A stretch of 64,000 bases of DNA. It comes from Antedon mediterranea (Eukaryota > Echinodermata > Crinoidea > Comatulida > Antedonidae). A program made the position numbers and the translations under genes. Below, piece by piece: positions 17,979 through 60,798 of this stretch. The stretch covers positions 22,798,365-22,862,364 of the forward strand of contig NC_092678.1 of assembly GCF_964355755.1 (NCBI RefSeq), given 5' to 3'. The notes below the pieces were generated by a model. It did not search any database and was not told where the DNA came from. It saw only the letters and a program-made list of their open reading frames with translations. How positions within the stretch are numbered: the first letter of the stretch is position 1; every line of letters begins with the position of its first letter.

Positions 17979-18023
17979 CGAAACGTGTAGGCCTAATTGG
18001 TTTACATTTATATTTCCGGTTAC
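17979..18023 (-). CDS. Gene F: basic linker exon (GNRKYKCKP type)
   Basis: Exon of 45 nt, phase 1-1, acceptor CCTACAG, donor GTAAGC. It encodes NRKYKCKPIRPTRFG. Gene E carries the same sequence at 56072-56110 without RP and gene D has a related exon at 49010-49057. The two extra codons are a GGCCTA insertion at 17990-17995 relative to gene E. The cluster of positive charge near the membrane helix would favour the cytosolic side. Confidence 0.6.
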
Positions 18024-23130: not shown

Positions 23131-23523
23131 TATAACAATAACACGTGAAGTAAAATATTTTAAAGAGACAATAAATTATAATCTTAAATAAGAGTTTAAA
23201 TGTTTAAAAAAAAATAACATTTTAAAATATAAGACCAGAATAGTTTATTTATTTAGATAAAATCGAGAATGGTAAATATTTTGTTCATGATACGTTGAGA
23301 TTTTAGGTACAGTATTAAAATATTTGCTAATACATTTTTTTTTTAATAGACCGATTTCTCTTTATTTTTCTTCTGAGTTATCAAGGCTATTCTATTACAC
23401 AAGTTTTTCGGTGTTAACATAAAGTATTTATTATAATTATTAAAATTAACTCTTTATTTAAAATTACCAATTAAAATCGGTAAGTCACAGTTTGTAAATA
23501 TAATTAATGTACTTTACTACATT

Positions 23524-28917: not shown

Positions 28918-29018
28918 CTGAAAACACACAAAAAGAGAATATTATCTGTTGAAACACATATTAAATCTGAACGTGGAAAATAGTGAGCTTTATTGAAATC
29001 ATAGTTACAAATACATAC

Positions 29019-29545: not shown

Positions 29546-29866
29546 CTCTTTTATTGAATACCGGTGCTTGTGCCGGTGCTTGTGCCGGTGCTTGTGCCGG
29601 TACTTGTGCCGGTGCTTGTGCCGGTGCTTGTGCCGGTGCTTGTGCCGGTGCTTGTGCCGGTGCTTGTGCCGGTGCTTGTGCCGGTGCTTGTGCCGGTGCT
29701 TGTGCCGGTGCTTGTGCCGGTGCTTGTGCCGGTGCTTGTGCCGGTGCTTGTGCCGGTGCTTGTGCCGGTGCTTGTGCCGGTGCTTGTGCCGGTGCTTGTG
29801 CCGGTGCTTGTGCCGGTGCTTGTGCCGGTGCTTGTCCCGGTGCTTGTCCCGGTACTTGATCTGCTG
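29546..29866 (-). CDS. Gene C: Ala-Pro-Ala-Gln repeat linker exon
   Basis: A 12-bp minisatellite (GGTGCTTGTGCC on the plus strand, about 24 copies) appears to be protein coding. On the minus strand it lies between a branch-point-like TACTAAT with a CAGCAGCAG acceptor and a GTAAAT donor. The 321-nt exon is phase 1-1, like all its siblings, only in the frame that reads Ala-Gln-Ala-Pro repeats (start DQVPGQAPGQAP, end APVFNKR). That gives about 100 residues of flexible or extended linker between the DED pair and the TM helix. The His/Lys/Arg, Thr/Ser/Gly and plus-strand Cys/Val/Leu frames are repeat artefacts. Copy number is likely polymorphic. Confidence 0.55.
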
Positions 29867-32335
29867 CTGAAGTATGTATTCATATGTATTAGTATAAACA
29901 AAACATCTCCGTGACATATTGACATTTTAAGTTAAATAAAAGGATGCGACACCTCCTGTCGTATATCCTTTATCGCCTATAAAGATAAACACACAAACAT
30001 TGCTGTATGTTTACCGTACCACTCTACAGTTGAGTAATTTTTGTATATTTATACATGGGTGATCGAGTAACCTTTTCAACATTGTATAGGCCCTGCTTAG
30101 GTGATGGTCTTTTACTTAAATGTCAATAACTCATTTTCAATGAGGCCCATTCACATTCAATCGTTATCGTCTTAGTGTAAATGGGCCTTAAACAAACATA
30201 CTTATACTTCGGCACTAGAAACAGCGCCGGTAGCCTACACAAACTATAGTTTGAAAATGATGGACAATGATACAGCATCACGTTTTTTTAAAAATTGTAA
30301 TTAAAAATAAAAGCCTATAACACCTCTCTTCTGCTTGCACGATTTTCAATAAATATATAAACAAAACCATCCAATAATGTAAAACAAGATTGTTTAAATA
30401 TTGAAAATCGAAAACAAAATAACTAACTAAATATATTGGCGATGAAGAGACGATTATTTAACGTTACCGTGATTAGGTTACTTCACACCATCCCAACATA
30501 ATTCGAGTTAATTTATTCCTAGCATCTTTAATTAATTTATTTATGTTTTTTAAAGAAACATTTGTTAGTGTTGTTCAATATCCATACACTATTTAGGCCT
30601 ATATGGTTTGAGTGATATTGTGTGTCTTGACAAATGCGTAACTTAAACTGCCTGCGTGTCCCAGTACTTGATCCGCTGCTGAAGTATGTAGGCCTATTCA
30701 TATGTATTAGTATAAACAAAACATCTCCGTGACATATTGACATTTTAAGTTAAATAAAAGGATGCGACACCTCCTGTCGTATATCCTGTACCGGTACCGG
30801 CGCTGGTTCTAGTGCCGAAGTATAAGTTTGTTTAAGGCCCATTTACACTAGGACGATAACGATTGAATGTGAATGGGCCTTTAAACTTTGCAAATGAGTT
30901 ATTGACATTTAAGTAAAAGACAAGTTAAAGACCATCATAAATAGGGAGTTTTCGCAATCTTACGAATACGATAACAAAAACGCACACGTATTCGTTTTTC
31001 GTAAGCCAGTTAAAATCTGTTTCACATGGCAACGAAATATTGAGGGCGCCGTCCAAAATATGACTGGTAAATTTGAGCGAAGCGCTGGTACGTGTCGCTT
31101 GGTGCTTGGCTGCCTAAGCCTAGCGTAACATCAAAGCGAGTGAGGACTTTAAAAACTGCTATTTATCAAAATTGACCTGGCATTTTAGTAAATTACTTTA
31201 TTCAAATGCAAAATGTGCAAAATAGATCAAAAACTATACTCGTTTTGTAGTTACGAATATGACTGGTGATATTCGTCAACACGCACACGCTTTACGAATA
31301 TGAAATGGGGATCAGCTCAAAAGTTTCACAAATGTGTGACGTATCCGCCGTTTTCGTTATCGTATTCGTAAGGTTGCAAAAACTCCCTAATATACAAAAA
31401 TTACTCAACTGTAGAGTGGTACGGTAAACATTACAGCAATGTTTGTGTGTTTATCTTTATAGGCCTACACAAACTATAGTTTAAAAAAAATAATGGACAA
31501 TGATACAGCATCACATTTAAAAAAAATTATAATTATAAATAAAAGCCTATAACACCTCTTCTGCTTGCACGATTTTCAATAAATATATAAACAAAACCAT
31601 CCCATAATGTAAAACAAGATTGTTTAAATATTGAAAATCGAAAACAAAATAAAATACGATATGTACTAAATATATTGGCCATGAAAAGACGATTATTTAA
31701 CGTGACCGTGATTAGATTACTTCCTGTACACACCATACCAACAGAATTCGAGTTCATTTATTCCTAGCATCTTTAATGTGTTTATTTATGTTTTTTAAAG
31801 AAACATTGTTCGTTTTTTTCAATATCCATACATTATTTATATAGTTTATTCGATGTTGTGTGTCTTGACAAAAAGGGTGACTTAAGCCGCCTGTGCGGTA
31901 CTTATTAACGTGGCCCTTCTGTATTTGTTACGTGTAGTTAATATTATAGTTGTAATTCCTCATATTGATACTTTATAATCATAATCATAAGATGTTATCA
32001 CATAAAAAAACGAAAAAAGGGGAATGCATTAAACATTCTTTGGCATTCCATAGATACAGTTAAAAATAATCTGAATTATTAGTTTAGTGACTACCATACA
32101 CAACATCCGTATCAACTGATTGCCAGCGGAGCTAGACATCTGGTAATATTTGTATAGATAAATCTACACTTTCGAGGCAAAATAAACGGGATAAGACGGG
32201 ATAAATCGTAACATTATTATTATAATAGGTTAAATCAATATTAATATAAATTATCCACTGTAATTATGATGATGCAAACTGTCTAGCGCCCCCTATATTG
32301 TCCTAATTTATGCCATAATTAATCTCAATAATTAT
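29867..32335. repeat. Gene C intron: inverted and direct duplications
   Basis: The sequence just upstream of the repeat exon (29867-29965) is repeated at 30677-30787. A block at about 29985-30235 is repeated in inverted orientation at about 30800-31460, interrupted by the MITE. A block at about 30235-30560 is repeated directly at 31460-31800. Parts recur in gene E's first intron at about 56545-56900. No gene is seen. Confidence 0.55.
30944..31387. mobile_element. MITE with GGGAG...CTCCC ends and TA flanks
   Basis: 444-bp element whose ends are an imperfect inverted repeat of about 40 bp: GGGAGTTTTCGCAATCTTAC at the left, and its complement with a few changes at the right, both leading into CGTATTCG / CGAATACG. 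It is flanked by TA on each side (942-943 and 388-389 of the respective kb). No coding capacity. It splits one arm of the surrounding inverted duplication, so it inserted after that duplication formed. Confidence 0.65.
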
Positions 32336-33913: not shown

Positions 33914-35661
33914 CCGGATATTCACCCCCTGGACATTTACCCCCCGGACAACTACCCCTCGGACAACCACCACCTGGACCACTACCCCCTTAGGACAACT
34001 ACCTCTTTAGGACAACTACCCCTTTAGGACAACTACCCCCGGACAAATACCCCCCGGACAACTACCCCCTTAGGACAACTACCCCCTTAGGACAACTACC
34101 CCCCGGACAACTACCCCCCGGACAATTACCCCCTAGGAACAATTACCCCCCGGACAATTACCCCCGGACAATTACCACCCAGAAAACTATCCCTTTAGAA
34201 CACCCTAACCACTCAGACCATTCAACAACCTGACTCTGCAACAGTGTATAATAGGAATTAATAACTATATTTTAATTCGTTACTTTGACGAATTACTATT
34301 CATTATTGTAAACAAAAGTAAAAGATTGAACATAAATATAGCCTAGTATAAACTGAAGATTGTCACACATGATCATAGGATAGTCGAACGTATTATATAG
34401 TACTCCCTGTATTTACTGTAAAGACTGGGTTCGCTAATAATAATAATAATTTTTGCGTCAGGACAATGCTTCGATAACCACTGGTCTTAAAAGAATTAAT
34501 TTTTGTCTCAAATTTGTCATATATGTATTTTTGTACACTTGAAGAATAATATCACTTTTGATATTTGACCTCAATGTTCACTCACCGAATAAACGTCGAT
34601 CTTTAAATAAATTCCCCTCAAATAAACGGTGACCATGTCACTCCCATGAAACATCATATGGAATAATCGGCGTCTATTTCCATTAGATTATACCCCCTCC
34701 CATTGAATAAACAACTTTCTTCCAATAAATGTCCACCTAAAAACGACCTAAACAATAAACAGCCCAGGCCGTTTTTTCAATAAATACGGTACTTTAAATC
34801 TAGCACATCTAGGGTCTTCTTGCGTGCTGTTAAACAGAATAATCGGTTAAAAACGGGTGTTTCGAAACTAGAGACCCGAGACCAGAGACCCAATACGAAA
34901 AGGGAGACCTAAATATACGAAAAGGGAGTCCCACGTACGAAAAGGGAGACCCCACTATACGAAAAGGGAGACCCCACTATACGAAAAGGGAGACCCTAAT
35001 ATACGAAAAGGGAGACCTAAATATACGAAAAGGGAGACCCAGTTATACGAAAGGGAGACCCAGTTATACGAAAGGGAGACCCAAATATACAAAATGGGAG
35101 ACCCAAATATACGAAAAGGGAGACCATAGGTCTCCCTTTTCGTATTGGGTCTCGTGTCAGGTCTCTGGTCTCGGGTCTCTCTAGTTTCGAAACAACCGTT
35201 AAAAACAGATGATTTCATTTTTACAGAAACCGGTCCTATATATTTGTCTACTTTTGGATGGGGGAGGGGGTTAGTTGACCGGGGGGTAGTTGACCGGGGG
35301 GTAGTTGACCGGGGGGTAGTTGACCCGGGGGTAGTTGACCCGGGGGTAGTTATCCTAAGGGGGTAGTTGTCCTAAGGGGGTGGTTGTCCTAAGGGGGTGG
35401 TTGTCCGGAGGGTAGTTGTCCGGGGGGTTGTTATCCTAAGGGGGTAGTTGTCCTAAGGGGGTAGTTGTCCGGGGGGTAGTTTTCCGGGGGGGTAGTTGTC
35501 CGGGGGGTAGTTGTCCGGGGCGTAGTTGTCCGGGGGGTAGTTGTCCGGGGGGTAGTTGTCCTAAGGGGGTAGTTGTCCTAAGGGGGTAGTTGTCCTAAGG
35601 GGGTAGTTGTCCGGGTGGTAAACATCCGGGGGGTAACTGTCTAGGGGGTAGGTGTCCTAGA
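33914..35661. mobile_element. Foldback-type element with minisatellite arms
   Basis: The left arm (33914 to about 34195) is an array of GGACAACTACCCC-type units; the right arm (about 35255-35661) is the same array in opposite orientation. Together they could form a long hairpin. ACCGTAT flanks both sides (33907-33913 and 35662-35668), a candidate 7-bp target duplication. The paralogous copy at about 61420-61450 runs through the site without the insert. The Drosophila FB family has this design: inverted arms made of short tandem subrepeats. The middle contains a further inverted repeat and AT-rich sequence with no transposase. Confidence 0.65.
34843..35207. repeat. Inner inverted repeat with ACGAAAAGGGAGACC array
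   Basis: Left arm about 34843-34912 (GTTTCGAAACTAGAGACCCG) and right arm about 35125-35207 (its complement) enclose about eight units of 22-24 bp containing ACGAAAAGGGAGACC. It lies wholly inside the foldback element. ORFs across it are repeat translations. Confidence 0.7.
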
Positions 35662-37767
35662 ACCGTATGATACATGAGTAACAGCGTCATAATATAATGT
35701 AGTTTAATAGTTATGTTAACGTAGGCCTACAAATATTATAATAATTATTTTAATTTAATATGCCGATTTTGTTAGGAAATGTGCAGATTTAGTGATATTC
35801 TATTCCATTCTTATTGGTTTGAACTTATTTCTTCCATTTTCCAATGAACCATAGCGCTAGGAATTCATTGTGTTTAGTAACACAACGAGACCCTTCACAA
35901 TTATTTTATTTGCTCTGCATTGAGTAGGCCTATTGATATTGCAGATTAAATAACGTTAGGTGAACTAAATAAATTGAAAGGATTGTTATGGTACAGTAAG
36001 TCCATTTGTCGTTTATCAAAGATGATGGAGTGGTTATGACCATTGGATTTATTTTGTAATGGTTTGCGCCACCTACAGTTCAATATCATCATTACATTAT
36101 ATGATAATGAATGTTGCATGAGTAGCTCACGTTGTATTGTGTCTCATACATCTATCTTACAGTATTTGTAGTTACATAATATTTGAATGTTCAATCTCAG
36201 AAAATAGAATCTCATCAAACCCTTTTCCCTCTCTTGCACCCGTGCACCCCAATGTTTGGTATTCACTGGATTTGCTAATGATTTCTGTCTAGTATTACTA
36301 GTAAATACAATTAAAACTAGATTTGAACTCGTCACTACGGACGAGTTAGGTTATCCGCAGTGCAAAAGCCACGTGCACGTCATACGTTAGAATAGTGCGC
36401 GCAAAAAAATAAAACGATTATGGCATTGAAAAATGTTAGTGCGCTCTCTATGTTGCGTCGCGTCTAAGTATATACGGTATAACACTATATACTGTATACG
36501 TACTACATACAGTGCAGAATAGGTGAAAATAAGTGACCAAAGTTATTGACGCATTTGAACATGATGACGTCATCACAATTTTTAAAATGGTGGATCATGC
36601 GAAAGGTAATTGATTGATCTAGACAATATAAAAAAATTGAGTGAAATGGAATAAGGATAAGTAGAGATGCGCTCTATTAAATTGACGAGCTATGACGAAA
36701 GAGAAAAAAATCCTATATTTTATATTCGGGTGGCCATACGATGACGTCACAATGTCTGGTTAGCCATATCAATGCATGATTCGAGAAAAACAACTCATCT
36801 ACTTCCAGAATCTGAAATTTTAAATATTTTCACCTCGGAGTTTAGAATCTATGACTGTTTTAAAAAAGGCATAATTTTGACGAATTTTTGAACTTTTTCT
36901 TCAAAAACGCGCGCAAACTGTTCAATTCTACGTGCTCGTATGACGTGATTTTAAGTCGAAATTGATTGAAAATTGGTAAATGTACTAGAAAAGGCTGAAA
37001 AAACAAAAATCAAGCAAAAAAAAGATGTTTTTGCGCTACGTGCGCACGCGCGCGTAAAAAATATGCGCACGCGTGGGAATTTTTGAAATGCTCAAAATGA
37101 CCTGAAACGCGTAGAAAGTTGATTAGAAATGAATTTTTCGCAATTTGAAATTTTAAACGCGCGTGCGCGCGTAACTTTATGTCAAACATGCCATTTTTAA
37201 TCCATAGAAAGTTTGCCCTTGATATGACTTAAATGTTCACTAAGTGTCATTACAAAATGACTTTTGCTTTTTAGTCTATGTTAAATACGCGAAATTCATA
37301 AAATCGCGCGTAGCTTACGCTGCGCGACTCTAAAGTAAAAAAACCAGCTGTCCTGCACTTCTACAGATAGAGGTAAATCTTCTGACAAAGTTATACGATG
37401 TAATGTTGATCAGAATTTGAGATACACGTGACACAAAATTTTGGGAAAGAAAGAAGAATAACATAGAAAAAAAAAAAAAAAAAAAAGATCCTGACAATAA
37501 CAAGAGGTTATCCGCCAAGAGCGGATAACCAATAAAGCCTAAATAAATTTCAAAATCTCATAAATATATTTAACACAACCACTAATAGTATACTGTGTTG
37601 ACTCTAAATTTATTGTGAATAATTTGTTATTTTGAACACCAAAGTGAAGCATACGAGCACTTTTAAATCATGTAACGATATAAACACATAGTCAGTTAAA
37701 GGTTGATTGGTTGATTATAATGGAATGAAAAATTGATAGATTAATTGCCATATTCTGGATTACTTAC
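35662..37767. other. Gene C first intron: host repeats and CpG-rich block
   Basis: 35669-36010 is the right half of the dispersed repeat copy 2 (cf. 61440-61760). 36024-36290 is nearly identical to 18205-18440 in gene F intron 1 and partly to 56284-56460 in gene E intron 1. About 36340-37540 is richer in CpG (runs of GCGCACGCGCGCG) and is bounded by GGTTATCCGC motifs. It may be another transposon, but clean ends were not found. No gene is seen. Confidence 0.4.
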
Positions 37768-38310
37768 TGTTATTCACATCAACAGAATTGATTAAATGGT
37801 TGAGTCTATTTCTTTTTAACATCTTAATGAATTCCTTCATGTTTTCTTCCGAGAGAATCTTGTTTCGTTCAAGATCTATGATCAAACTCCAGCTATCTTC
37901 ATAATGTTTAAACATTGTTTCTTCATACATCTCACTTATCTTTGTTGTATCTCTATCTGTCATAGCATTGCCTAGCCGCATTATCTTCTGTCTGTGTTCA
38001 TTAAATTCCAACATTCTCTCTTCTGTTGGTTGTAACATTTCTAATCCTGCTATTATGTGTATTCGGTCCCAGAGTCCATCTTGTTTTGTTACACTAATGG
38101 TATCATATATAAGAGTGGGATTGTTGTGATTCAGTCCTTGATAAGTATACAACAAGTTTAACAAGTACATCATTGACGACGCGTTCTCTAGTTTACCTTT
38201 ATCTGGCACCAAATCTTCGTACAACACTTTAATCATCTTGATTTGGCAAAATTGGTCAAACCAATTTGCCACAGTACTTTTCAACTGTATGAATTGATCG
38301 TCTGTTAAAG
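37768..38310 (-). CDS. Gene C: DED-like exon (divergent tandem pair)
   Basis: Exon of 543 nt, phase 1-1, acceptor CTCTCACAG before 38310 and donor GTAAGT after 37768. Unlike the other DED exons it starts phase 1, so a short upstream exon with the Met should exist; the in-frame ATG at 38335 lies in the acceptor tract. It encodes two DED-like units: about residues 1-95 (LKSTVANWFDQFCQIKMIKV, LWDRIHIIAG) and about 100-180 (HRQKIMRLGNAMTDRD, then IDLERNKILSEENMKEFI). The second is the most DED-like helix pair in the cluster. I assign it to gene C because the next exons in this direction are the 29.5-29.9 kb linker and 29.1 kb TM exons and shared intron-1 sequence lies between. Confidence 0.65.
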
Positions 38311-40432
38311 CTGTGAGAGTAAAAATACATATCATTGTGTTATTTTATTTCTAATATTTATATTATGATAATGAACAACTGCAACAGAAAACAACCACAC
38401 GGAGTAGTACAGGATGTGACATGTATCCTAAATAACATTAACAATTCTAATATTATTATCTTAAGGTGTGAATAATTAACAACAAAAATGTGCAGACTTT
38501 TATTGTGTTAGCGAGATATTTAAGGTCAAAGGTCAGTGACTTTTATGTAACATTTGATGTCTTATAACTCCTCAACCCCTGGGTTTAAAAGGATAAATGT
38601 AGTGTCATTAGGAGTCACAAAAATAAATACAACTTTTGCAACTTTTTAATAATTCCATTGGTCAGATATACAAGGTCAAGGGTCAATGACTTTATTTAGT
38701 ATATAATGGCTCATAACTATTTAACAACTGCACACAACAGGACAAAAGTGTTCCTGAATCGGTTTTACTGACCACATATATTCTTGATTCACCATCAATG
38801 TTTTTAAAAAATTGTATAAGTTGAATCTAATTAATAAGTACAAATCTTAATTTCTGCCGATGTCATTGTTATTTTATTTTTATATGTTAATATATTGTAT
38901 ATATCCTTTTATAGTTTTAGCTGTTAGTTTTTTTAGGTTTTCAACCTTGTACAAGCTTTTAGCTTTTGTTGTTGATCCTTTTCATCTTTTATGCATTTTA
39001 TCTTTGACATGTTTTATGATTTTTATGTTTTTTTGATGAATAAAATGAATGAAATGAAATGAAATGATTCAGTACATTGTTTGTCTATTTGTGACTTTAT
39101 AGTCAGAGATATATGATAATTCAATACAGGCAGTCATTTTGGATTTTGGCCGCCATTTTGGAAGATCGAAAACTGATTGGCTGGCTTCTAGGCAAAAATC
39201 AATTTGTAGGTCAAAAGAAGTCTCATGCCAAATTTGGCGCCACTCGCCTTAATCACTATATAATGTCCATTTTCACAAATGGAATAAACATCTAATTGAT
39301 TTAAATGTAAATTATTGAGACCGGGATCTCGTTTTTTACTTATGTTTAGTATATTTTACCTGTTTCTGTTCCTTCCATGTTTTCTGGTGAACAAAGGTGG
39401 CGGTTGCTTATATTCAATATAGTATATATAGTATTTTGACAAAAGACTAGTTGCAAAATTGTTCCTGTGCAGTAGACTGAATCTCACAGTTGACATCTAA
39501 AACTCAGTAAAGTAACGATAACTTAACATTGGTGGTGTAGACCTATTAATGTACGTATCTAACTAGATAAATTGTAAGAATAGTCGGTAACATATTGTCG
39601 ACAAGTACTTTTGTTAACAGTATATTAATTCTGTATTATTATATTTCATTGAAGCGACACAGCCACGTCACAATTAATGAATACCAACAACCTGATCAAA
39701 AGCCTTATAGTAATATCGTATCAAAAAATAGGTATGGAATGAGGAATTTATAGTCCGGTTTTACACATATATACAGTATTATATTCATTCATTTAAATGA
39801 GTATATAATTGTAACCATATTAGTATTTTGGTATTACTACTTTGGATATATGATGAGGTTGATTAAACATTTAAAACTATACAGAATCTCGACATCCTTG
39901 TGTTCAGTAGAATTGATCGTTTTTCATTAAATGTACCGGTTCACTGAATCATACATAGTATAACTAAATATACGCTTGCTCTATGCTATGTCGGTTTTAG
40001 CTTTGCATTTAGTTTTGCAACTTATGGAATCGATCATAGTATAACATTTTAGGTGGAATATTTTAATCAATCATTGTACTTCTTTTCGGCATTGAAAACT
40101 TCGTGTTCTAGGTCTATTTATAACTAACTAACTAAACTATTTTTCTCCCGCGTATGCTGTTTTTGACGTTTGTTTGTAACGTGATTTCGTTTAAAGAAAT
40201 ATAATAATCATTATCTTACAATGAAATGCCAACAAACTGCCTGTTGAGGGCAGTAGACTAATACATAAAATTATCATTTTCATTTATTACGTATTCTGTA
40301 TTGTTATTTTCAATTATATGTAATTAGGACTACTGTTATAGGAGAATCTTAGAAATGATAAAACCAATAATATGAATTGTGAAATATAACGACATTCAGT
40401 GTACCATTTGGCGTTCTTTAGTTAGGCCCATA
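38311..40432. other. Gap: 5' flank of gene C and repeats
   Basis: A DR1-type AGGTCAAAGGTCA is at 38523-38535, with a diverged duplicate at about 38670. About 38880-39066 looks like a LINE 3' end (AATAAAATGAATGAAATGAA tail). About 39430-39670 is a weak match to the conserved 5' flanks of genes F and E. No gene can be supported; the 60-codon ORF near 39113 is not convincing. Confidence 0.35.
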
Positions 40433-40560
40433 CCACTATAGGCCTATTATCCACTATAGGCCTATACCACTATAGGCCTATTATCCACTATAGGCCTATA
40501 CCACTATAGGGCTATTATCCACTGTAGGCCTATACCACTGACAGTAGGCCTATTATCCAC
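40433..40560. repeat. Short tandem repeat containing TAGGCCTA
   Basis: About four copies of a unit near 34 bp containing ACTATAGGCCTATTATCCAC, each with one or two TAGGCCTA palindromes; one copy has lost a base (TATAGGGCTA). Confidence 0.7.
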
Positions 40561-43029: not shown

Positions 43030-43335
43030 CCTGACAAATAATAAATTTATTATTTGTCATCCGTTAGAGCAGGTAACTATGTACAATGGCATCATAAATT
43101 ACCTGCCCTGACGGATGGCAAATAATACATTTCTTATTTGTCATCCGTCAGAGCAGATAACTATGTACAATGGAATCATAAATTACCTGCCCTGACGGAT
43201 GGCAAATAATACATTTCTTTGTCATCCGTCAGAGCAGGTAGTTGCTATGTAGGCCTACAGTAGAATCATACAATACATGACCTGACGGATGACAAATAAA
43301 TAAATGTCTTAGTTGTCATCCGTCAGGACAGGTAA
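43030..43335. repeat. Array of four hairpins
   Basis: Four tandem units of about 70-95 bp. Each contains an inverted repeat: GACGGATGGCAAATAA-like on the left and TTATTTGTCATCCGTC-like on the right, framed by CCTG...CAGG. The first unit has a shortened left stem. The fourth has a GGCCTA insertion just before it (43252-43257). Confidence 0.7.
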
Positions 43336-43372: not shown

Positions 43373-45777
43373 GCATTCCACAGTATTTGGTCCATGGGCT
43401 TAAACATTTCATTTACTGATTTTGATGTAACCCTTGGCCATTTCTCAAAATAGACACATATTGAAGTTTATAATAACATTTTTTTTTATTTTTCTATTTA
43501 TTTTTTAGTTAAATATTAAATATGAAAAAAACATATTTGACGTGGACATTTTTAATCCTATTTATTTCATAGACTATGCATCTTATTACTATTTTTTCAA
43601 CATATATAGTTACTTTATGTATCAATAATACATAATCAAGTATTTAATTACAATTTTGTTTTTTTTTATATTAATTTCATACATGCATTTCAAATTCATA
43701 AATGTCCCGTCCGCGACGATGTAGGCGGTTTTTTTTACATTTATTTTAAAAGTAATGATGCAAAAATCTTGATAATTCATTTTCTCCTCCTGAGCACTAT
43801 ATCTCATTATATTATGAACACATTTTTTTTAAATTTTATATTTTGATGAAAATATCATATTTCAAAAATATATTGTTACAGACGGGACATTTTTGTTACG
43901 GACGGGACATATCATTTAAATCCTAATTATTTCACAAACCATGAATCTTGTAAACATTTTTTTACCAGATATAGCTACTCTATGTTCCTATTGCACATAG
44001 TCAGGCATTTTATAATACATATTTTGTTTATTAAATTTCATATATATATTTCAATAATTGTCCCATCCGCGACATTTTAATAGTAGTTTTATAGTGTTTT
44101 TTACATTTCAGTTACAAGTATTGATACCACAATTTAATATTTTGTTTTCTCATTTTGAAAACTATATGCAATACATTATATACAAATATTTTGAAACTTT
44201 TGCTGAAAATATCATATTCAAAAATATATTGATGACATTTTTCGTAGGAACGGGACAGGCATTTTTGTTAAGAACGGGACATACATTTAAATCCTTTTCA
44301 TTTCATAAAACCATGCATCTTGTTAACATTTCCCCATAAATATATTGTAGTTCAAGTTCAATCAAGTATTTTATTAAATTGTTTATAAATTTAATACTTG
44401 CATTTCAAAGTTCATAATTGTTACTTCTTAGACATTTCGAGTGGGTTTTTTTCCTCACTTGTGTTTGTTGAAGTAATGGTTCCACAATAGTTATTTAATT
44501 CTTAATTTTAAATCTTAATTTTCAACTGCTAAGGATATTTAATTTCAATAGATTTCATTCATCTTTTTATTTCGGAATTAAACAAGTTTTTTAAAACTTG
44601 TATTATGTATTTAAAAAAAACATTACTATAAAAAATTATTGAATGTTACGGATGGTGCATTTTTTTTATGGACGGGATTGCATTATTTTAAGAATTAAAA
44701 AGTGTTTTGTACTGTAGGCTGGTAAGTACTGTACAAAGGTCTTAACTTTTGTTTATTAATCCGGTCTGTGTTTAAAATAACAATCCACAAAAGAACAATA
44801 CCAAAATCCAAAACAACATGACCAGTATGAATGGGAGTATTTGGTGCGGTCATCACTTTGTAGATTTCATTCTTTGTGAATTTGCAACCAAGAACCTTTT
44901 TTTTGTAAATCAGATACTAAATAATTAAGATTTAATTTAAATAGAAATAGGCCTACAGTGATATTAAATCCAAGCAAGGATAGAAGAAAATTTTAGATGC
45001 AACTTGGTTCCACTAACAAATTCAGACGTCAAACGCCAACGCCAATTTTTAAAGATTCGCCTTAAATGTGTTACTATCTTGAACTGTTGTGTAATATGCC
45101 AAGCATAGCTTTTATATTAGTGTAAATAAATATTTTGATAACATTTAACAATATTGCTTCTATTATAACTCTTCGAATAATTAATTTTATAAATAATATT
45201 TCATATTTATGAATTTTAATATTTTCACTTGACATAAACTTTTAAACAGTGTTTCAAAGGTTGAATTATATTTTGATTTGGAAATAAAAGATTACATTGA
45301 TGTAAAAACTTATTTTTTTATTTTTTTAATAGCAAAACAATTTTTTAACGTGGACAAAAGTGTCTTGTCCGCGACGTTAGAAATGTCCCGTCCGTAACGA
45401 CATATACTGTAAATCATATTTATTAATAAATTTGCAGTTAAATTTTTATAATTAACATTCAGTTATCTAAAACAACTATCTGGCAACATAATTATACAAA
45501 ACAAATTTTAAAATCTCTTTTAAATGAGGAGAAATATTACAATACGTAAACCTTCTTAAAAGTCATGTCCATTTGCCGTCCCATCCGTGACGCATACAAT
45601 TTTCAATTTTTTGTATACAGTCTTTTTTCTTTTTTTGACTTTCATAATTAACATTGGCCATATATGTATACATTTATTCTACTTTGAATCTTGTATTTTT
45701 TTTTATTTTTAAGATATGTCTCGTTATATTCTCAAAAATGTCTCGTCCGTCTGTAAAAAAAAAATACTGTGGAATGC
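43373..45777. repeat. Nested inverted-repeat-bounded block with 370-bp tandem units
   Basis: GCATTCCACAGTATTT at 43373-43388 is perfectly inverted at 45762-45777. Inside, at least three diverged units of about 365-370 bp follow one another (landmarks CATGCATCTT-like at about 43573, 43940 and 44309). GGACGGGACAT / GTCCCGTCC motifs recur through the block. This may be a separate transposon inserted in the larger one; the duplication at its edges is unclear. Confidence 0.5.
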
Positions 45778-48596
45778 ACTAAATATGAAGACGTAGTAGG
45801 GAAGTAGGCAATAGTAGAAGAGGTCCTGGATTATAGTAGGGACATTTAGATCCTTCCAAATGTATCTTCGTAAGAATAGAAGAAAATAAGAAGATGCAGC
45901 TTTAACTAATAAATGTATTAAACCTATAATCAAAAAATTTAAAAGACAAAGTAAATGCGCTTTAAACATAGGTTTATTAGTTTCTATATACCAACTTAGA
46001 TAGTTAAACTCTTCTATTTCTAATGTTTTGTGATTCTCTTCATCTCTTAAAACAAATGTTGGAATTATTGATGTAGGCCTACAGTAAACATTTCCGACGT
46101 CATTTCTATTGATAGATATCAGGTCACTTTTGATTATTATATTATTTTTATAACATTCACTTAGCATGTCATTAACAATAATACCTGTTAAATTACAATT
46201 ATTCATAGAAAGACATCTTAAGTTTGGAAATATAATCAATATATTAGCTAGTGTACTTCCATTGATCGATGATAGGTCAATCCCATCCAAAAAAAGATTA
46301 TTCCATCTAAATCTGTAACGACTAGGTGATATTAAAATATCGTTTAATTGTTTAGATGACATATTATAATTACCCCAAGTTTGGCTTCGATGGCAATGCC
46401 GTGCCTCTGTTAAATTGATAATGTTTCCAAGTAATTCGGTATCAATATCTGAAAGATCATTTCCTTGTAACTTGATAATATTTTTTTTGGACTTTAGATA
46501 GTTTATATCTACTTTATTAAACATGTCAACTATTTGTTTGCTTGATAAGTCAGAATGCACACTGAAATCTTTTAAATCTTTAGAAGTGTTTAATATACGA
46601 CCTAATAAAGACCCATTTATAAACGCTGGTGAGTAGATCATTAGCTTAAAAGTCTTCAATTCAACCAAAGCTTTACTATGTTCACATTCTTCTAACATTG
46701 TGTTAATATGTGAACCAACTATATTATAACCCATATGATGTATGTCCAGATGTTTTAGATTATGGAAGTTTTGAATTAGTTTGCAAATCTGTGAGTCAAT
46801 AGTAGTATTATATTTGAAGTCATCAATGGACCACTGAAATGTATATACTTCATCACCAAAACGGTATTTTTTCCATTCTTCTGAGAGGATTTTAAGAGCT
46901 TTATCACCCCATTTATGAAGTAATCGTATCATACACCTACTGTTTCGACTTGGATACAGATATCGTAATAAGATTTCAACGTGTGCTACTAACCTACATA
47001 CATTATCAGGTGACTCAATGTTTGATTCTTCTATGATTGATATCATAGTTTCAGATATTTCTCTTTCTCCCTTGTTTGTAATGTCATCTGCAAACAATTT
47101 CATTTGTTGGAATAAGTGCAAACCGCGGTAATTTGTGTTTAAAGAAAATCTGAAATTTTCAACATCTATTTTCATTTCAGATGACATGTGTTTATCCAAT
47201 GATTTCAATACCTTTTCTTCGTGCTCGTTATTTACACGTTTAAAATAATCTAAAAAAGAATAATAATTTGATAGCCTATTTACCAACCAGTGTTTCATTA
47301 ATTTGTCTGCATTAGGACCCAGAAAACTGATAGTGAAAACTGTTATCATTTGTAAATACCCGCTCGTCCTTAACTTCTCGTATTCCAAAGATGTTAAAGT
47401 CTCCATTTTGTTAGACAAGTAAAACCCGGCCAGAGCTTCTGACAATAACTTATGTGGACATCTGTATGTTTCCACAAATTCATCCTGAACAGTAGGGTCA
47501 TCTTTGTAAACAAATCCTAATTTCAACGATAAATCAACTAAAGTTTCATTTCTTACTAGTTCAAGTAATTGTATTTTAGAAAAATGAAGTTTATTTCTTT
47601 GTAAACCAATGTAACTTATTTTTCCTAATATTATAATTGCATTTTTATAGTCAGTGGAAATTTTGTCAAAGTTTGATATCCGTTTTTGCTTATTACTTCT
47701 GTTAATGTACTGATTTAAAATGGAACGGAAGATTTCTTTCAAAAAATGTTGAAAATCTTTTGGAATTATTTGTTCGTGTTGCCATATAACACACATTTTA
47801 AGTAATAAAAATGGGGATGAAAACAGTTCAAATACATTTTTGTGATCACCACCCCAATTATTTTTCACTGAATCAAGTTTGAATTCGTTAATCAATAACT
47901 GGCCCAGATTAGAGTTGTTTACAAAATTGAAATATCTATTTATATATGGTTTTATGTTTTCTGTGCAGAATCCGTCTACTTTTACATATACATCAAAATG
48001 TTTATATAAGCTTTCAGTAAAACCCGGCCGTGAAGTCAGAATAACTGTACTGTCTTCCAATTCTTCTCTTTTTAATATCAGTGGAATGTCTACCCCATAT
48101 GTTAACTCATCTAATCCATCTATCAGAAGAACTAAATCGTTGTCGTATTTCTCAATAAAAGTTCTTATAATAGTTTTATTTACATACATATCAGATTCTT
48201 TACGAAATGTCTTCAGCTTAACTGAATCAACGATAATATCTATGATTGTTCGACCTTTCTTGATGTCTCTTACGTTAACAAGAAATAATATTTTACCAGC
48301 AAACGTATCATCGGAATTGGTCGCCCACTTATAAGATAAATATTGAAGCAAGGTTGTCTTACCAATTCCACCATTTCCTACCATTAATACTTTACAGGAG
48401 TCTTTAGACTTTATAATATCCAATAATTCTTGTAATGATGCGTCGACTTTTCTTTTTTCTATATTCAGTACTGGATCTGTGAACATCTGTGAAATGTCAT
48501 ACTCTTGATCTTCTCTCCATGTAGGTGGTCTTATATTTGGGTCTTGGAATTTTTTTCTCTGTTTTGCTGTTATGAAGTTTCTTATAATATGCTCAT
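45724..48596 (-). CDS. Gene D: NACHT-LRR exon with transposon-derived C-terminus
   Basis: Terminal exon of about 957 codons. The acceptor before 48596 gives DEHIIRNF; the first Met in the frame (48486) is internal. Walker A GNGGIGKTT, Walker B LVLLIDGLDEL, TSRPGF and LSEALAGFYL are intact and the frame is unbroken. LRR-like units run to about 46100 and a hydrophobic helix (LNFLIIGLIHLLV) follows. From 45857 downward the codons come from the inserted transposon, so the last 44 residues (from about KDLNVPTIIQ) replace the tail seen in gene C. A GGCCTA at 46076-46081 adds two residues (RP-type) relative to gene C. With exons 48753-48833, 49010-49057, 49830-49880 and 50167-50668 the protein is about 1184 aa. 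Confidence 0.86.
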
Positions 48597-48752
48597 CTGA
48601 AATGAAGGCATTTAGTAATTCAATTCAACTTATAAAAAGTATAATAGACACAAAAGACGATTTTTCCGGAATTTAAATCTGGCAAACAGTCTACAATGAA
48701 CCTATAAAATACAATTTCAAAAAGTTCTGTCTGTATTAATAAATGTTATTAC

Positions 48753-52707: not shown

Positions 52708-55616
52708 TTATAACTCTCTGCTTAGGCCTAGAAGAACTGTAAACAATATACACAAACATTTAATAAATAAACTAAGACTAATCAAATAAATGAAATGATA
52801 AAATCGAATGTATCCTCGGTTATGTAATACATATAAAAGAAGATAATAACATGTTATCAGACTTAAGAACGCTATTTTGTGATTATATATAGAACTTTCT
52901 AAAAACAAGTTCAGTCGATGTTTATTTCGTTTTTGTATTATACAACTGTGATAAGGCCTAAGGTCCAATGACTGTCCTTTCAATGTTATACTACTGTTTG
53001 TTCGTGTGATAACCATTGATTTGAATAATAATTTATCATGAATATCATACAAGTAATTTCCATCAAGAGATATTAAATCAACTTTAATTCCCTTTCCAGA
53101 ATATCTTTTTAGCAAGTCTATAACATTATAATTTACTAATTTACAGTAATTCATAGAAAGGCGTTTTAAGTTTGGGAATTTAATAAATATATTAGCTAGT
53201 GTACTTCCGTTGATTGATGATAGGTCGACAAAATCTAAATTAAGAAATTTCCATTTAAATCTGTAACGCTTAGGTGATATTAACAGATCGTGTAATTGTT
53301 GGGCGGATAAAGAATGAAGAAACCAAGAAAATCCATAAAGTGTATCATTTACATCAGATATAATTAATGAATTGATAAGATTCGCAAGTAAATTACTATC
53401 AAGATTTGAAAGATCATTGTTCTCTAAATTGATAAAATTCTCTTTTGACTCTAAATAGCTTATATCTACTTCATTCAGCATATCAACTATTTCGGCGCTT
53501 GATAAAGAGCAATTACTTAAATCAAACATTTCTAAGTCTTTATAAACATTTAAAAAATGACCTAATAAAGCTCCGTTGATGTTTGACAAATTATTGTTCC
53601 CAAGAAGAAACCACCGCAAGTTAACAAATGTTTTACTGTGTTTACATTCTGTTAGCATTGAGTTAATAAGTGAACTGTGTGATGCACCCTTTGAGTCTCT
53701 CGAAAAACGTATCAATAGTAGGCTTAGGTTTGGAAAGTTTTGAAATAATTTGCACATGCGTGAGCCAGTATGGCGCCTATATAAAAAGCGTGAATCATCT
53801 TCAATAAACATAAAAGAACGTATTTCTTTGCCTACATTATATTTCTTCCATTCAAAAGAGAGAATCTCAAGGGCCTCATCACCATGTTTTTCAATTAGTT
53901 TAATCAAATATCCATCCCGATTATATTGGGTTAGGTCTGCTTGTATGGTATCAGCATTATATAATTGTAATATTATTGAATAGTGAGCTATAATGCTACA
54001 CATACATTCACAATGTTTATTATACTCCATCATACTTGACGATATCATTCTTGTTATGTTATTACTATCTTTTCTAAGTCTATTACGAAATATATTTAGT
54101 AATTCTATTAAATGCAAATTGTCGTTGCAAACAAATTTTCTAAATGAATCCCTTAAATCGTTAACGTCCATTTTCATTTGTGGAGAGATTTGTTTATCCA
54201 GTAATGTTAATACTTTTTTTTGGTATTTTGGATTTACATATGTGAAATATTTGGAAAAGGAATAATAATTAGAGGCCCTATTTACCAACCAGTGTTTCAT
54301 GAGTTTGTCTGCATTGGGACCTAGAAAACTAATAGTGAAAACTGTTACTATTGGTAAAAGTGGGTGAAGCCTTATTATCTCGCATTCTAATGGATCTAAA
54401 GTCTCAATTTTATTAGACAAGTAATATCCAGCGAGTGCCTCTGACAATAACCTATGTGGACTTCGGTAAGTCTCCAAAAAACTATCCTGAACAGTAGAAG
54501 TATCTTTGTAAACAAATCCTAATTTTAGTGCTAAGTCAACTAAAGTTTCATTTTTAACTAGAGTGTTTACTTCAGTTTTAGTAAAATGAAGTAAAATTCG
54601 TTTTAAACCAATGTAACTAATTTCTCCTAATATTATAATTGCGTTTTTATAATCTGTGGGAATGTTGTCAAAGTCTGTTATTGCCTTTGTAGTAGGTTCA
54701 TCCCTTCTATTAATGTACTGATTTAAAATCGTGCGGAAAATTTCTTTAAACAAATGTTCAAGATTTTTGGGAATCATTTGCTGGTGTTCCCACACAACAC
54801 ACATTTTAAGTAAAAGGAAAGGAGATGAAAATAGTTCAAATATGTATTTATGATTACCGCCCCAACTAGTTACATCATCTGAATCAAGATTAAATTCACT
54901 AATCAATAACTGACCCATTTTAGACTGTCCAATAGATTTGAAATACCTCTTGATATATGGTTTTATGTTCTTTATGTCAAATCCTTCTACTTTTACACGT
55001 ATGTCATAATATTTATGTAAACTTTCAGTAAAACCCGGTCGTGAAGTAAGAATAACTGTACTCTCTTCCAGTTCTTTACTTTTTAAGATCATTGGAATAT
55101 CAACTCCAGAATTTAACTCATCTAATCCATCTATCAGAAAAACTAATTCTCTGTCGTGATCCTCTATAAACATTTTTATAATTGTTTTATTAATATGGAG
55201 ACCTGTTTTTTTACGAAAACGTTTTAGGTCAACTTCATCAACTGTTGTATCTGTGATTGTTTGTCCTTCTTTGATGTCTCTGAGGTTTACGAAAAATAAT
55301 ATTTTATCAGCAAACGTAGTATCAGAATTTGTCGCCCAGTTATAAGATATATATTTAAGTAATGTTGTCTTACCAATTCCCCCATTTCCAGTAATCAATA
55401 CCTTACATGAGTCTCTGAACTTTATAATATCCAATAATTCTAGTAAAGATGTGTGCTTTTGTTCTCCATTTGGTGTACTGCTGATATATAGTTCTGGATC
55501 GGTAAAGATTTGTGAAATATTATGATAGTTATCTTCTCTGAACGTTGGTGGTCTTATAAATGGATCTTTGAATGTTTTTCTCTGTTCTCCTGATAAGAAA
55601 TTTCGAATAAGCTCAT
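52708..55616 (-). CDS. Gene E: NACHT-LRR exon with hydrophobic C-terminus
   Basis: Terminal exon of about 969 codons after a TTTCAG acceptor (DELIRNFLSGEQ). Walker A GNGGIGKTT, Walker B LVFLIDGLDEL, TSRPGF, SPFLLLKMC and LSEALAGYYL are all present and the frame is unbroken. LRR-like units include LEMFDLSNCSLSSAEI and LKRLSMNYCKL. The last 70 residues contain two hydrophobic segments (IAFLSLITCYYLLLYVL and HFIYLISLSLFI). With exons 55762-55866 and 57045-57606 the frame is continuous and the product is about 1191 aa. Confidence 0.88.
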
Positions 55617-55761
55617 CTGAAATAAATGAAAAGCAAGTATAAACCATTAATAACATTGAAGATTTTTTTAAAATTTGAAACAGTAAATTTCTAATGACCG
55701 TTAGGTAGCGTCTATTAAAAAAAAATTATTATAATAATAATTATAATATTATAATAATTAC

Positions 55762-56183: not shown

Positions 56184-57044
56184 TTTACACAAAGAACGTC
56201 ATTTACTCATAACCAATACAGTACTATTATTTTGGTGTCTGTTGTGACACCATAGATCATTCTCTGTGACCAGTTGTTTCCAAGATGATGAAGTGGTTAT
56301 GAAAAAATACCGCCAATGATTTATTTTAAAGGTTTGTGCCACCTACAGGTCAATATCATCATTAAATTATACGATAATTACTGGTACACGTAGGTCATGT
56401 TGTATTGTTAATCATACATCTATCACAAAAAATGTAATTATGTAATTATTTAAGATTCCTAATATGACAGTAAGGCTACGCACCAAAAACACTTGTTGGT
56501 TGTTCCTGTGTTCCTCTCTCTCTCACCTGCACTTGTTCCTGTCGTTCTGAAGTATAAGTGTTTTTGTTTAAACTTTGCAAACAATCCCCATGAGGTATTG
56601 ACATGTACGGTAAGTAAAAGGTAAGACCATCACATAAGTAAGGGCCTATACAACAGGTCTATCTATCTATGAAAGTTCAATCAAAAATAAATATACAATA
56701 ATAATTCATATATTTGTACTAAATTACTCAAAATGTAAGAAGAGTGGTGCACATTACAGCAATGTTTCCATTCGTGCATTTTGTATGTTTATCTATATAG
56801 GCCTTTAAGCGTGACTTAAACTGCCTGCGCGGTACTTAGGCTTTCTGTTCTTTTACGTGGAATTAGATAATATTATAGCTGTGATTCCTAAATTTGACAA
56901 GTTAAGGTAGAAATAAAATTAATAGCAAATAACTGATAAAGTGAAACTATTTACATTTTTTATTTAGCATTATGGGAGATTATATTTTTAGAACATCATT
57001 TATTTTGTGGATCTATTTTTAGAGATAAAGAATAAAATACATAC

Positions 57045-58969: not shown

Positions 58970-60798
58970 ATGGTACGCTCGCTAGGTTGTGCCCACATGG
59001 TTCTGGAATACATAATAATTTCAGTGTTAAAGAACAGGCGATTTCAAATGTACGTACCGCAGGACAATAATACATGTCGTTTACAGGAACAAATAAATAA
59101 TAGACACTGTGATTTATGTACTCAACTAAAATTAGCACCCTGGGAATTACTTCCGAAAGAGAAACTTGTCACAAAATGAGACAAATTGTTTAAGTCAAAT
59201 TTAAACAAACTTAATTTGTGTTTTGTATGTAACATTAGGGTTGAGGGATGGGGAAGAGGATGGGTGCAAAGAAGAACAATTTTTAAATATATTCTTTATC
59301 CATTTAGTAACGAAATAACGTATTCTTTAACGGTATGGTTCGGTAGCGCTACCGAAAATGAAAAGCGTGACCTAAATAGAAAAGTCAAGACCGCATCGCG
59401 TATAATTGGATCTGCACAACTGCCTTTGGAGAACATATTTTCGGATCGTCTTCTGAAAAAGGCAGTGGCTATCAAAGATGATCAATTTCATCCGGCCTCT
59501 AGTATGTTCCAGTTGATGCGCAGCGGTCGGCGATTTCGTTCTATTAAGGCCAATAAGGCACGATTTACAAATAGTTTCTTTCCAGGATCTATTAGAGCCT
59601 TAAATATGATGTAGACACTTTTTTTTGTAATGTTTTTGTTTTTGAGTTCGTGTTGTGTCCGTTGGATATTGTGCTCCGCCAACAGAGCAAACAGAATTTC
59701 TATGTTTTTCCTAAAACAAATGATAATAAATGATACTTGAAACTTGAAACTTGAAAATATTAATTGTTTTCATGTTTTACAAATAATATACCACTATACA
59801 CAGTAAAACATTGCGATTTAATACTTTGTTGAAACTATCACCGTCGATTGAAATAGTAGGCCTATAGTACATGTAACGATACATCACTACGACGTGTATA
59901 ATATGTTGTTCTGCGTTTAGGGCATGTGATGTACCGTAGGCCCATCCTCTACTGGTTTTACAACGCTACTCATGCCAGTGAGGGAAGGGTGATGATGTGG
60001 GTGGTTTAACTGCAATAATAAAGATGTGTACATAATATACGGCGAGTGAAAGCGCTAGCTCATTATCTGTTTAAACAAGAATATTTCTTACAAAAAACGC
60101 TGCTCGCTTATTGTTATTGCTAAGGTCAAGTCTGGGGGTCACTTCATCACGCCTAGATACTTCAAGTATCCTATTACAAACAAAAACTTCAATGGACTGT
60201 TTTGATAACAATTCAATGATTATCTGACAGCGAATTATAGTAATATCATGGGACTCATAAATACCAGAAATGCTTTGGGATTTGTCGTTAGACTCTTTTC
60301 CCAGCCGTTTTTTGATTCAACAGGTGGTACCTATAAATTATAGTGGAGTTTTCCATTTTAACAAAAATGTCAAAGTGTAGTACTATAAAGCTGCTTGATT
60401 TCATCTAATGAATGAGTCATCTCGTGTGACGTAGCGGGCTAGAGCAGCAGCGTGAAAAATGTATATCCAACCTCTGCAGCACAGATTGAAATGGTTGGGT
60501 TGGTTGGAAAAAAAAATGGATCGAATTTCTGTTATGAGTATACAGTACTTGCCTTTACGACGCCTGAGGGAATAGACACTTGTGGAACAGAGATTGGAAT
60601 GTTCCATTCATCGCAAATCAATACATTTGTATAAACGTATATTAAATCTATCAAACTAGTATTTTTTTTTTTTTAAATCGGCCTGTCTTCAACATTATGA
60701 TGCTGTACTCGAGCTGTTCAACCAGTTTTCAGCCATTAAAAACAATTATCGTAGGAGGAGATAGGAAAATGCGAAGCATCCTCGTATAATTGTCTGCG
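58970..60798. repeat. Segmental duplication, copy 1
   Basis: Homologous, in the same orientation, to 62850-64000. Shared landmarks in order: TACGTACCGCAGGACAATAA, GGGTGCAAAGA, TAACGATACATCACTACGAC, GCCAGTGAGGGAAGGGTGAT, GACGCCTGAGGGAATAGACA and GCGAAGCATCCTCGTA. This copy carries a LINE insertion; the second copy lacks it and also lacks about 400 bp around 60060-60470. ORFs across it are not conserved. Confidence 0.75.
59318..59754 (+). mobile_element. LINE 3' fragment with empty-site paralog
   Basis: 437-bp insert encoding the C-terminal end of a non-LTR RT (SLTVWFGSATENEKRDL, KTASRIIGSAQLPL, SGRRFRSIKANKARFTNSF). A short 3' UTR and an ACTTGAA-repeat tail follow. It is flanked by AAATA (59313-59317 and 59755-59759). 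The second duplicate copy at about 63181-63200 reads straight through as the empty site. It differs in family from the other two LINEs. Confidence 0.8.

What the first reader, a model, noticed from the sequence alone, without database searches (positions are those of the whole stretch)
59859..59864. TAGGCCTA octamers behave like 6-bp insertions at TA: candidate transposon excision footprints
TAGGCCTA occurs roughly 35 times by eye, where base composition predicts fewer than one. In close paralogous pairs one copy has exactly GGCCTA added after a TA: 59859-59864 versus 63297/63298; 30691-30696 versus 29878/29879; 30596-30601 versus 31839/31840; 43252-43257 versus 43167/43168; 46076-46081 versus 26417/26418; 17990-17995 versus 56082/56083; and, more diverged, 35927-35932 versus about 14902. 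TA to TA-GGCC-TA is what an element with a TA target duplication and GG...CC ends would leave on excising with two bases of each end. Variants TAGGGCCTA (1192, 33740) and TAGGCCCTA (33782) fit three-base remnants of GGG...CCC ends. A MITE with TA flanks and GGGAG...CTCCC ends is present at 30944-31387. Two insertions fall in coding exons and add two codons.
Basis: partly seen in the sequence, partly recalled or inferred. Interest (0 to 1): 0.88.

Follow-up and report, generated by a model that had tools for sequence, protein, structure and literature searches.

The report
Genome littered with transposon-like excision scars
A feather-star genome carries tens of thousands of identical six-letter insertions at TA sites that look like scars left by a cut-and-paste jumping gene whose identity is still unknown.

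Summary
TAGGCCTA occurs 36 times in the window (0.53 expected), 128,596 times in the 354-Mb genome and 44 times in 190 kb of spaced samples (1.9 expected, 44 distinct left flanks). The host is a crinoid, probably Antedon mediterranea (inferred). In repeat alignments without satellites and MITE copies, 7 of 42 TA-GGCC-TA sites have a copy reading exactly TA, against 4 of 840 other TA-N4-TA sites (p 1e-7). Polarity is gain: in one MITE family 34 copies are empty and 2 filled, and an ancestral TAGGCCTA shows no GGCCTA deletion in 40 copies. TACAGTA/TACTGTA, the known Sleeping Beauty footprint, is also enriched and inserted at TA. Best reading: excision footprints of a TA-targeting transposon with GG...CC ends, keeping two bases per end. 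The source element was not found; genome searches for its transposase did not complete.

The parts
59857..59864 (.). TAGGCCTA; GGCCTA absent from the paralog at 63296 (TA) and from L024 (one further difference): derived insertion
30689..30696 (.). TAGGCCTA; paralog at 29878 has TA
30594..30601 (.). TAGGCCTA; paralog at 31838 has TA
43250..43257 (.). TAGGCCTA in one unit of an 84-bp tandem repeat (43035-43326); the two aligned sister units in direct orientation lack GGCCTA
46074..46081 (.). TAGGCCTA in the coding exon of a NACHT gene (ORF on - strand, 45724-48624); adds Arg-Pro; followed by CAGTA where the 26417 paralog has TACTGTA
17988..17995 (.). TAGGCCTA; two paralogs (about 56082 and 49003) lack GGCCTA, with small further differences
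35925..35932 (.). TAGGCCTA shared by the 61696 copy; comparison with about 14902 not verifiable
40423..40560 (.). 34-bp tandem array carrying six TAGGCCTA copies; amplified satellite, not six separate events
30942..31389 (.). TA-flanked MITE, GGGAG...CTCCC ends; member of a multi-copy family; rejected as the main footprint source
56217..56223 (.). TACAGTA; two paralogs have TA: second (Sleeping Beauty-type) footprint class
23308..23314 (.). TACAGTA; one paralog has TA

Best explanation
TAGGCCTA is the excision footprint of a cut-and-paste DNA transposon of the Tc1/mariner kind. The element inserts at a TA, preferably R-TA-Y, and duplicates it, giving TA-GG...CC-TA. On leaving, the transposase cuts the non-transferred strand two bases inside each end, so both flanks keep a GG 3' overhang. 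GG and GG cannot pair, so end joining keeps both and fills in, giving TA-GG-CC-TA: six bases added to the original TA. A second class of elements with CAG...CTG ends and a three-base stagger leaves TA-C(A/T)G-TA; those overhangs anneal with one mismatch, so only three bases remain. Shown here: the words, their excess, TA precision, gain polarity and a target bias. Inferred: the transposon, the two-base stagger and the repair steps. Not found: the GG...CC element.
For: Genome count 128,596 against 1,587 for the word read backwards. 44 against 1.9 expected in 190 kb, 44 of 44 left flanks distinct. Among words XY-core-XY with cores of 2-6 bases and at least 12 occurrences, TA-GGCC-TA has the highest z (65); TA-CAG/CTG-TA leads the three-base cores (z 21). 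AGGCCT ties for the commonest 6-bp indel class in repeat alignments (4 of 33 loci). Exact empty copies: 9 of 168 GGCC sites (10 with one mismatch allowed) versus 5 of 1,084 other TA-N4-TA sites; 6 of 73 CAG/CTG sites versus 14 of 1,080. Without three arrays and the MITE copies: 7 of 42 versus 4 of 840 (p 9.6e-8) and 6 of 42 versus 9 of 824 (p 3.3e-5). Gain polarity: 34 MITE copies empty, 2 filled, 4 mutated or unclear; an ancestral TAGGCCTA in the same 40 copies is intact in 34, substituted in 6, deleted in 0; three aligned NACHT paralogs lack the coding insertion. G stands before TA at 35 of 88 footprint flanks against 17.5% of all TAs (p 7.9e-7). Papers (passages only): Sleeping Beauty leaves TAC(A/T)GTA, 5 bp added (PMC4378557, PMC3432063); Tc1 breaks have non-complementary two-base 3' overhangs (PMC4490562); Stowaway/Osmar5 keep 1-4 bp TIR fragments next to TA, Passer 0-4 bp (PMC1925063, PMC9976928).
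Against: No element with TA flanks, GG...CC ends and an R-TA-Y target context was found. The only GG...CC family seen (GGGAG MITE) has the wrong target context, and none was polymorphic between paralogs in 304 kb. No transposase was identified; the genome search for one did not complete. The remnant is more uniform than described ones: TA-flanked GGGCC or GGCCC together 5 against 44, whereas Tc1 breaks in worm germ cells gave 26 distinct products in 103 animals (PMC4490562) and rice excisions give complex patterns (PMC4423477). The GGCC sites with empty copies are about seven independent events, because copies of one insertion count more than once. The target bias is clear for TAGGCCTA but weak for TACTGTA (54 G of 230 in the spaced sample) and absent for TACAGTA in the window (11 G of 56).
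Confidence: 0.7

Rival explanations
1. No element was ever there: a TA-directed break (for example a staggered cut at TA) is filled in and extended by two untemplated bases, or by self-complementary GGCC, before joining. A nuclease and a polymerase would write GGCCTA directly.
For: The insert is palindromic and very uniform, and no donor element was found in the sample.
Against: A second insert, CAG/CTG at TA, is identical to a known transposon footprint. No such enzyme is known to me (recall, not searched).
Confidence: 0.13
2. The GGGAG...CTCCC MITE family itself (window 30942-31389 and relatives) leaves TAGGCCTA when it excises.
For: Right TSD (TA on both sides in 20 of the first 20 copies) and right terminal bases; 921 first-look candidates, 40 scored.
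Against: G stands before TA at 3 of 67 MITE ends but at 35 of 88 footprint flanks in the spaced sample, p 1.3e-7; before TA the MITE has A 41, T 21, G 3, C 2.
Confidence: 0.06
3. TAGGCCTA is an old abundant word and GGCCTA is lost between the two TA repeats by slippage.
For: TA...TA is a short direct repeat that could mediate deletion.
Against: 0 exact deletions in 40 MITE copies with an ancestral TAGGCCTA; at the sites listed the filled state is never the majority. Deletion also does not explain the abundance.
Confidence: 0.03
4. TAGGCCTA is a selected protein-binding motif or part of amplified satellites.
For: Satellites carrying it exist in and next to the window and inflate totals: 93 of 161 occurrences in the 114 kb around the window lie in three arrays.
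Against: 44 of 44 spaced-sample sites have distinct flanks; a binding site would arise mostly by substitution, not by exact 6-bp insertion at TA.
Confidence: 0.05

Closest known systems
Sleeping Beauty / Tc1-like canonical footprint TAC(A/T)GTA
   Same: TA duplication with terminal transposon bases left between; this exact word is also enriched and polymorphic here
   Different: That footprint keeps three bases and adds 5 bp; TAGGCCTA keeps 2+2 and adds 6 bp
Caenorhabditis Tc1 excision (two-base non-complementary 3' overhangs; the TACATGTA footprint is recalled, seen in no call)
   Same: Two bases of each end kept, palindromic four-base remnant between TAs
   Different: Ends would be GG...CC instead of CA...TG; TACATGTA is not enriched here (12 versus 20 expected, both strands)
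Stowaway / Osmar5 footprints in grasses (PMC1925063)
   Same: 1-4 bp TIR fragments next to duplicated TA
   Different: Footprints there are varied; here one form dominates
PIF/Harbinger and ISL2EU
   Same: Harbinger TIRs start GG (PMC4423477)
   Different: TSDs are TWA and AT, not TA (PMC4482050)

Membership tests
Tc1/mariner (IS630-Tc1-mariner) excision footprint | Target TA duplicated | tested here: met
   Empty copies read TA, filled read TA-GGCC-TA
Tc1/mariner (IS630-Tc1-mariner) excision footprint | 2-4 terminal transposon bases between the TAs | tested here: inconclusive
   Length fits (4 bp), but the element supplying GG...CC is unknown
Tc1/mariner (IS630-Tc1-mariner) excision footprint | Derived gain, not loss | tested here: met
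Tc1/mariner (IS630-Tc1-mariner) excision footprint | Matching element and DDE transposase in the genome | not tested
   The genome search with PF13358 did not complete; Pfam scan of 10 hand-picked sample ORFs gave no transposase
GGGAG MITE as source | Same target-site context as the footprints | tested here: not met
   G before TA 3 of 67 ends versus 35 of 88 footprint flanks
Sleeping Beauty-type footprint (the TACAGTA/TACTGTA class) | 5 bp CAGTA/CTGTA gained at TA | tested here: met
   6 of 73 sites with exact empty copy versus 14 of 1,080 controls; 6 of 42 versus 9 of 824 without arrays and MITE copies
ISL2EU | AT target duplication | tested here: not met
   TSD is TA here; AT in PMC4482050
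PIF/Harbinger | 3-bp TWA target duplication | tested here: not met
   Only TA is duplicated

The most novel reading that the evidence does not exclude
No transposon made these scars: the animal, or a parasite enzyme in it, has a TA-directed insertion process that writes GGCC(TA) at R-TA-Y sites across the whole genome, so that tens of thousands of TAs have been rewritten without any element ever having been present.
Probability: 0.12. Interest if true: 0.9.

Novelty: new variant of a known kind. Interest (0 to 1): 0.62.

Why it matters
Footprints are usually studied one at a time. Here a single footprint is so uniform and frequent (44 dispersed copies in 190 kb, which would scale to about 80,000 genome-wide) that it could serve as a fossil counter of transposition and as a clean source of small directed insertions, one of which added two codons to a NACHT gene. 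If the 2+2 reading is right, it predicts the end bases, stagger and target context of an element not yet identified in this genome, so it can be searched for.

Tried and rejected
GGGAG MITE as the main source: rejected on target context. Deletion polarity: rejected. Candidate GG-ended inverted repeats in the sample (40 of 47 rows were shown): the GGACAACTACCCCC pairs are tandem satellites. L019 6989-8624 (GGTATCCC ends) has a TTAGTAG repeat outside each end, so it looks like an element with a longer TSD; its exact end word occurs in no other of the 69 loci then held, and inexact matches in the window are at chance level (6 versus 5.4). L026 4941-7711 shows only a short match. L020 (CCGTAAAACC ends) would predict TACCGGTA, which is rare (6 versus 2.3 expected). 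L023 lies in an ORF. Split-alignment search for TA-flanked insertions between paralogs: 74 candidates, none with matching GG...CC ends. CAG/CTG swaps between paralogs: in the table of aligned TA-N3-TA words 10 of 11 CAG cells matched and none was CTG; two apparent swaps (46074, 2831) were seen outside that table. A looser indel list put AGGCCT at 5 of 65 six-base rows (four sites; tied with AATTAC) and ACAGT at 7 of 108 five-base rows (three sites plus one that is no footprint), so the indel evidence for CAG alone is thin there. Viral contigs scanned for one double footprint word: 0. Pfam scan of 10 sample ORFs: no transposase. An earlier flank count (85 G of 222) had left in a satellite upstream of the window; it was redone on the spaced sample alone (35 of 88) and the conclusion held. 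Papers: 10 library searches; in the listings I saw (30 of 182 papers, 10 of 240) nothing treats TAGGCCTA as a footprint. Only passages of papers were read, and only openly licensed papers are held; Plasterk 1991 on Tc1 footprints is not held.

Full report
The window and its source. The window lies at G000:C9:22798365-22862364 of a 354.4-Mb genome in 18 contigs. The best protein matches of its NACHT gene are from the crinoids Antedon mediterranea and Anneissia japonica. The contig lengths of six Antedon mediterranea hits (38,962,182; 31,901,198; 30,557,870; 28,587,047; 26,055,566; 22,273,604) agree with C3, C5, C7, C8, C9 and C11 (38,956,436; 31,897,500; 30,548,870; 28,582,174; 26,049,364; 22,267,044) to within about 0.03%. 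I infer a feather star, probably Antedon mediterranea. The top hit is only 56% identical to the query, so this rests on contig lengths and kinship.

Is the word there and in excess? TAGGCCTA occurs 36 times in the window. Order-2 simulations give a mean of 0.53 and a maximum of 3 in 60 runs. It is the commonest palindromic octamer (36, next 19). Of cores made of G and C alone between two TAs, GGCC occurs 36 times and no other four-base core more than twice. Six of the 36 belong to one tandem array, leaving 30. Genome-wide the exact count is 128,596 against 1,587 for the word read backwards. That total includes satellites: in the 114 kb around the window 93 of 161 occurrences lie in three arrays (73 about 29 kb upstream, 14 about 4 kb upstream, 6 at 40423-40560). 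Nineteen 10-kb stretches at round positions on ten other contigs hold 44 against about 1.9 expected (88 against 3.74 counted on both strands), and all 44 have different left flanks. Scaled up, that is about 80,000 dispersed copies.

An unbiased look at word shape. Words of the form XY-core-XY with a repeated dinucleotide, cores of 2 to 6 bases and at least 12 occurrences were ranked by excess over an order-2 model in 254 kb. TA-GGCC-TA had the highest z (160 against 5.1 on both strands, z 65). Among three-base cores TA-CAG-TA/TA-CTG-TA led (238 against 66, z 21). Several of the other high scorers belong to tandem repeats, for example the 12-bp repeat at 29561-29858. TACATGTA (12 against 20), TAGGTA/TACCTA (79 against 100) were not in excess and TAGGGCCCTA was absent.

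Insertion or not? In self-alignments of the window GGCCTA is present in one copy and exactly missing in the other, leaving one TA, at 30594, 30689, 43250, 46074 and 59857, and with one neighbouring difference at 17988. In an indel list made without naming the motif, AGGCCT (up to rotation and strand) tied for the commonest 6-bp class (4 of 33 loci; AATTAC also 4), and ACAGT was 4 of 61 five-base loci (AAAAC had 6); the four ACAGT loci are TA to TA-CAG/CTG-TA, two of them one site seen in two alignments. In 326.8 kb (19 spaced stretches, 114 kb around the window, 39 MITE copies) I then compared every TA-N4-TA and TA-N3-TA site that has an aligned copy with good flanks. Copies reading exactly TA were found for 9 of 168 GGCC sites (10 with one mismatch allowed) and 5 of 1,084 others, and for 6 of 73 CAG/CTG sites and 14 of 1,080 others (Fisher p 2.4e-6 for 10 of 168, 1.3e-5 for 9 of 168, 0.001 for CAG/CTG). 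Leaving out the three arrays and the MITE copies gives 7 of 42 against 4 of 840 (p 9.6e-8) and 6 of 42 against 9 of 824 (p 3.3e-5). The ten GGCC sites are about seven independent events: L021 twice, L043/L044, and two copies upstream of the window probably each count one event twice. Sites are not events, so the p-values are indicative. Sites 17988 and 43250 did not meet the flank rule and are not in these counts.

Polarity. In a MITE family aligned over 40 copies, two copies (L043, L044) carry GGCCTA at a TA where 34 read exactly empty and 4 are mutated or unclear. Whether the two share one event is open: they differ by 3.4% and neither is the other's nearest relative. The same 40 copies have an ancestral TAGGCCTA elsewhere: 34 intact, 6 with one substitution, none with GGCCTA lost. 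One copy, L037, has a gain that makes TACAGTA at a TA. The NACHT exon at 46074 encodes Arg-Pro that three window paralogs lack. In DNA, two paralogs read exactly TA there (26417 and one about 12 kb upstream of the window), a third lacks the six bases with other differences, and a fourth is too poorly aligned to tell. At 59857, 17988, 43250 and L026:5415 two or more other copies lack the insertion. Among the GGCC and CAG/CTG sites with empty copies listed, the filled state is never the majority.

Target context. In the spaced sample the base before TAGGCCTA (both sides, read outward-in) is G 35, A 24, C 18, T 11 of 88, against 17.5% G and 33.8% T at all TAs (p 7.9e-7 for G); in the window outside the array it is G 29 of 60. 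TACAGTA in the spaced sample shows A 64, G 58, T 24, C 16 of 162, a similar shift. TACTGTA, its reverse complement, shows it only weakly (A 77, T 56, G 54, C 43 of 230), and in the window TACAGTA shows none (11 G of 56). Strand symmetry gives no reason for the difference; I read it as sampling over a background of chance occurrences, but the shared bias is therefore only suggestive. An earlier count (G 85 of 222) had left in a satellite and is superseded.

The element at 30942-31389 belongs to a family with 921 first-look candidates, 40 of them scored. Twenty of the first twenty fetched copies are flanked by TA on both sides and end GGGAG or GAGAG and CTCCC or CTCTC. Of the next nineteen, 14 have TA at the left end (five have AA, TT or an altered end), 14 of 14 recognisable right ends have TA, and five right ends were not recognised. 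Before TA it has A 41, T 21, G 3, C 2 at 67 ends. Against 35 G of 88 for the footprints this gives p 1.3e-7. It can supply at most a minority of the footprints. A search for TA-flanked gaps between paralogs in 304 kb (74 candidates) showed no other GG...CC element.

Mechanism. Sleeping Beauty leaves three terminal bases and so adds five at TA, as TACAGTA or TACTGTA (PMC4378557 and PMC3432063, passages). The first paper says these two words occur at over 300,000 places in the mouse genome; here they occur about once per kilobase (196 in 190 kb). Tc1 leaves breaks with non-complementary two-base 3' overhangs (PMC4490562, passages). Stowaway and Osmar5 leave 1-4 bp fragments next to TA (PMC1925063), Passer 0-4 bp (PMC9976928), and Tc1/mariner elements in general 2-4 bp (PMC7913693). 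An element with TA target, GG...CC ends and a two-base stagger would leave GG overhangs that cannot pair, so that joining keeps both: TAGGCCTA. A CAG overhang pairs with its partner except in the middle, so three bases remain, with A or T. The two words therefore fit one enzymology with two kinds of ends. The numbers are not absurd: if exact footprints survive to about 12% divergence, at an assumed 5e-9 substitutions per site per year, 80,000 footprints need some 3,000 per million years, a few per thousand generations and genome. These rates are assumptions, not measurements.

What is not shown, and what speaks against. The element and its transposase were not found. The genome-wide searches that would help (transposase family, genome count of TACAGTA) were asked repeatedly and never answered. 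No second individual or species was available. The remnant is unusually uniform: worm Tc1 breaks gave 26 distinct products in 103 animals (PMC4490562), and rice excisions are described as complex (PMC4423477). The model explains the uniformity only if almost all heritable excisions keep exactly two bases per end.

Noticed in passing
window, 190-kb sample, L026:5415, L037, 56217, 23308: TACAGTA/TACTGTA, the Sleeping Beauty footprint word, is enriched about 3.6-fold (238 versus 66) and shows exact TA-empty copies.
   Followed up: yes
46074-46086; 2831-2843 with L013:1501: TAGGCCTA is directly followed by CAGTA while a paralog has CTG at that place; could be independent repair outcomes of one excision.
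   Followed up: partly
40423-40560 and about 4 and 29 kb upstream of the window (L030, L071): Satellites carrying TAGGCCTA have amplified the octamer into arrays (6, 14 and 73 copies).
   Followed up: partly
124-801, 3809-6655, 26123-28960, 45724-48624, 52708-55725 and L028, L071: Cluster of related NACHT-type ORFs (Pfam NACHT confirmed for 45724-48624 only) with small ORFs between, one (37760-38344) matching the death effector domain below Pfam's cut-off.
   Followed up: no
30942-31389 and 39 fetched copies: TA-flanked MITE family of about 450-510 bp with an ancestral internal TAGGCCTA and A or T before its target TA.
   Followed up: yes
L019:6989-8624: Inverted repeat TAGGTATCCCAATG with TTAGTAG outside both ends: possible element with a 7-bp or longer target duplication.
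   Followed up: partly
33924-34195 and 35266-35657: Two arrays of the same 15-bp unit in opposite orientation about 1.1 kb apart.
   Followed up: no
window: TGACGTCA occurs 8 times in the window; GACGTC is also enriched in the 190-kb sample (50 versus 16.8).
   Followed up: no
29561-29858: 12-bp tandem repeat CCGGTGCTTGTG, about 25 copies at 98% matches, open in several reading frames.
   Followed up: no
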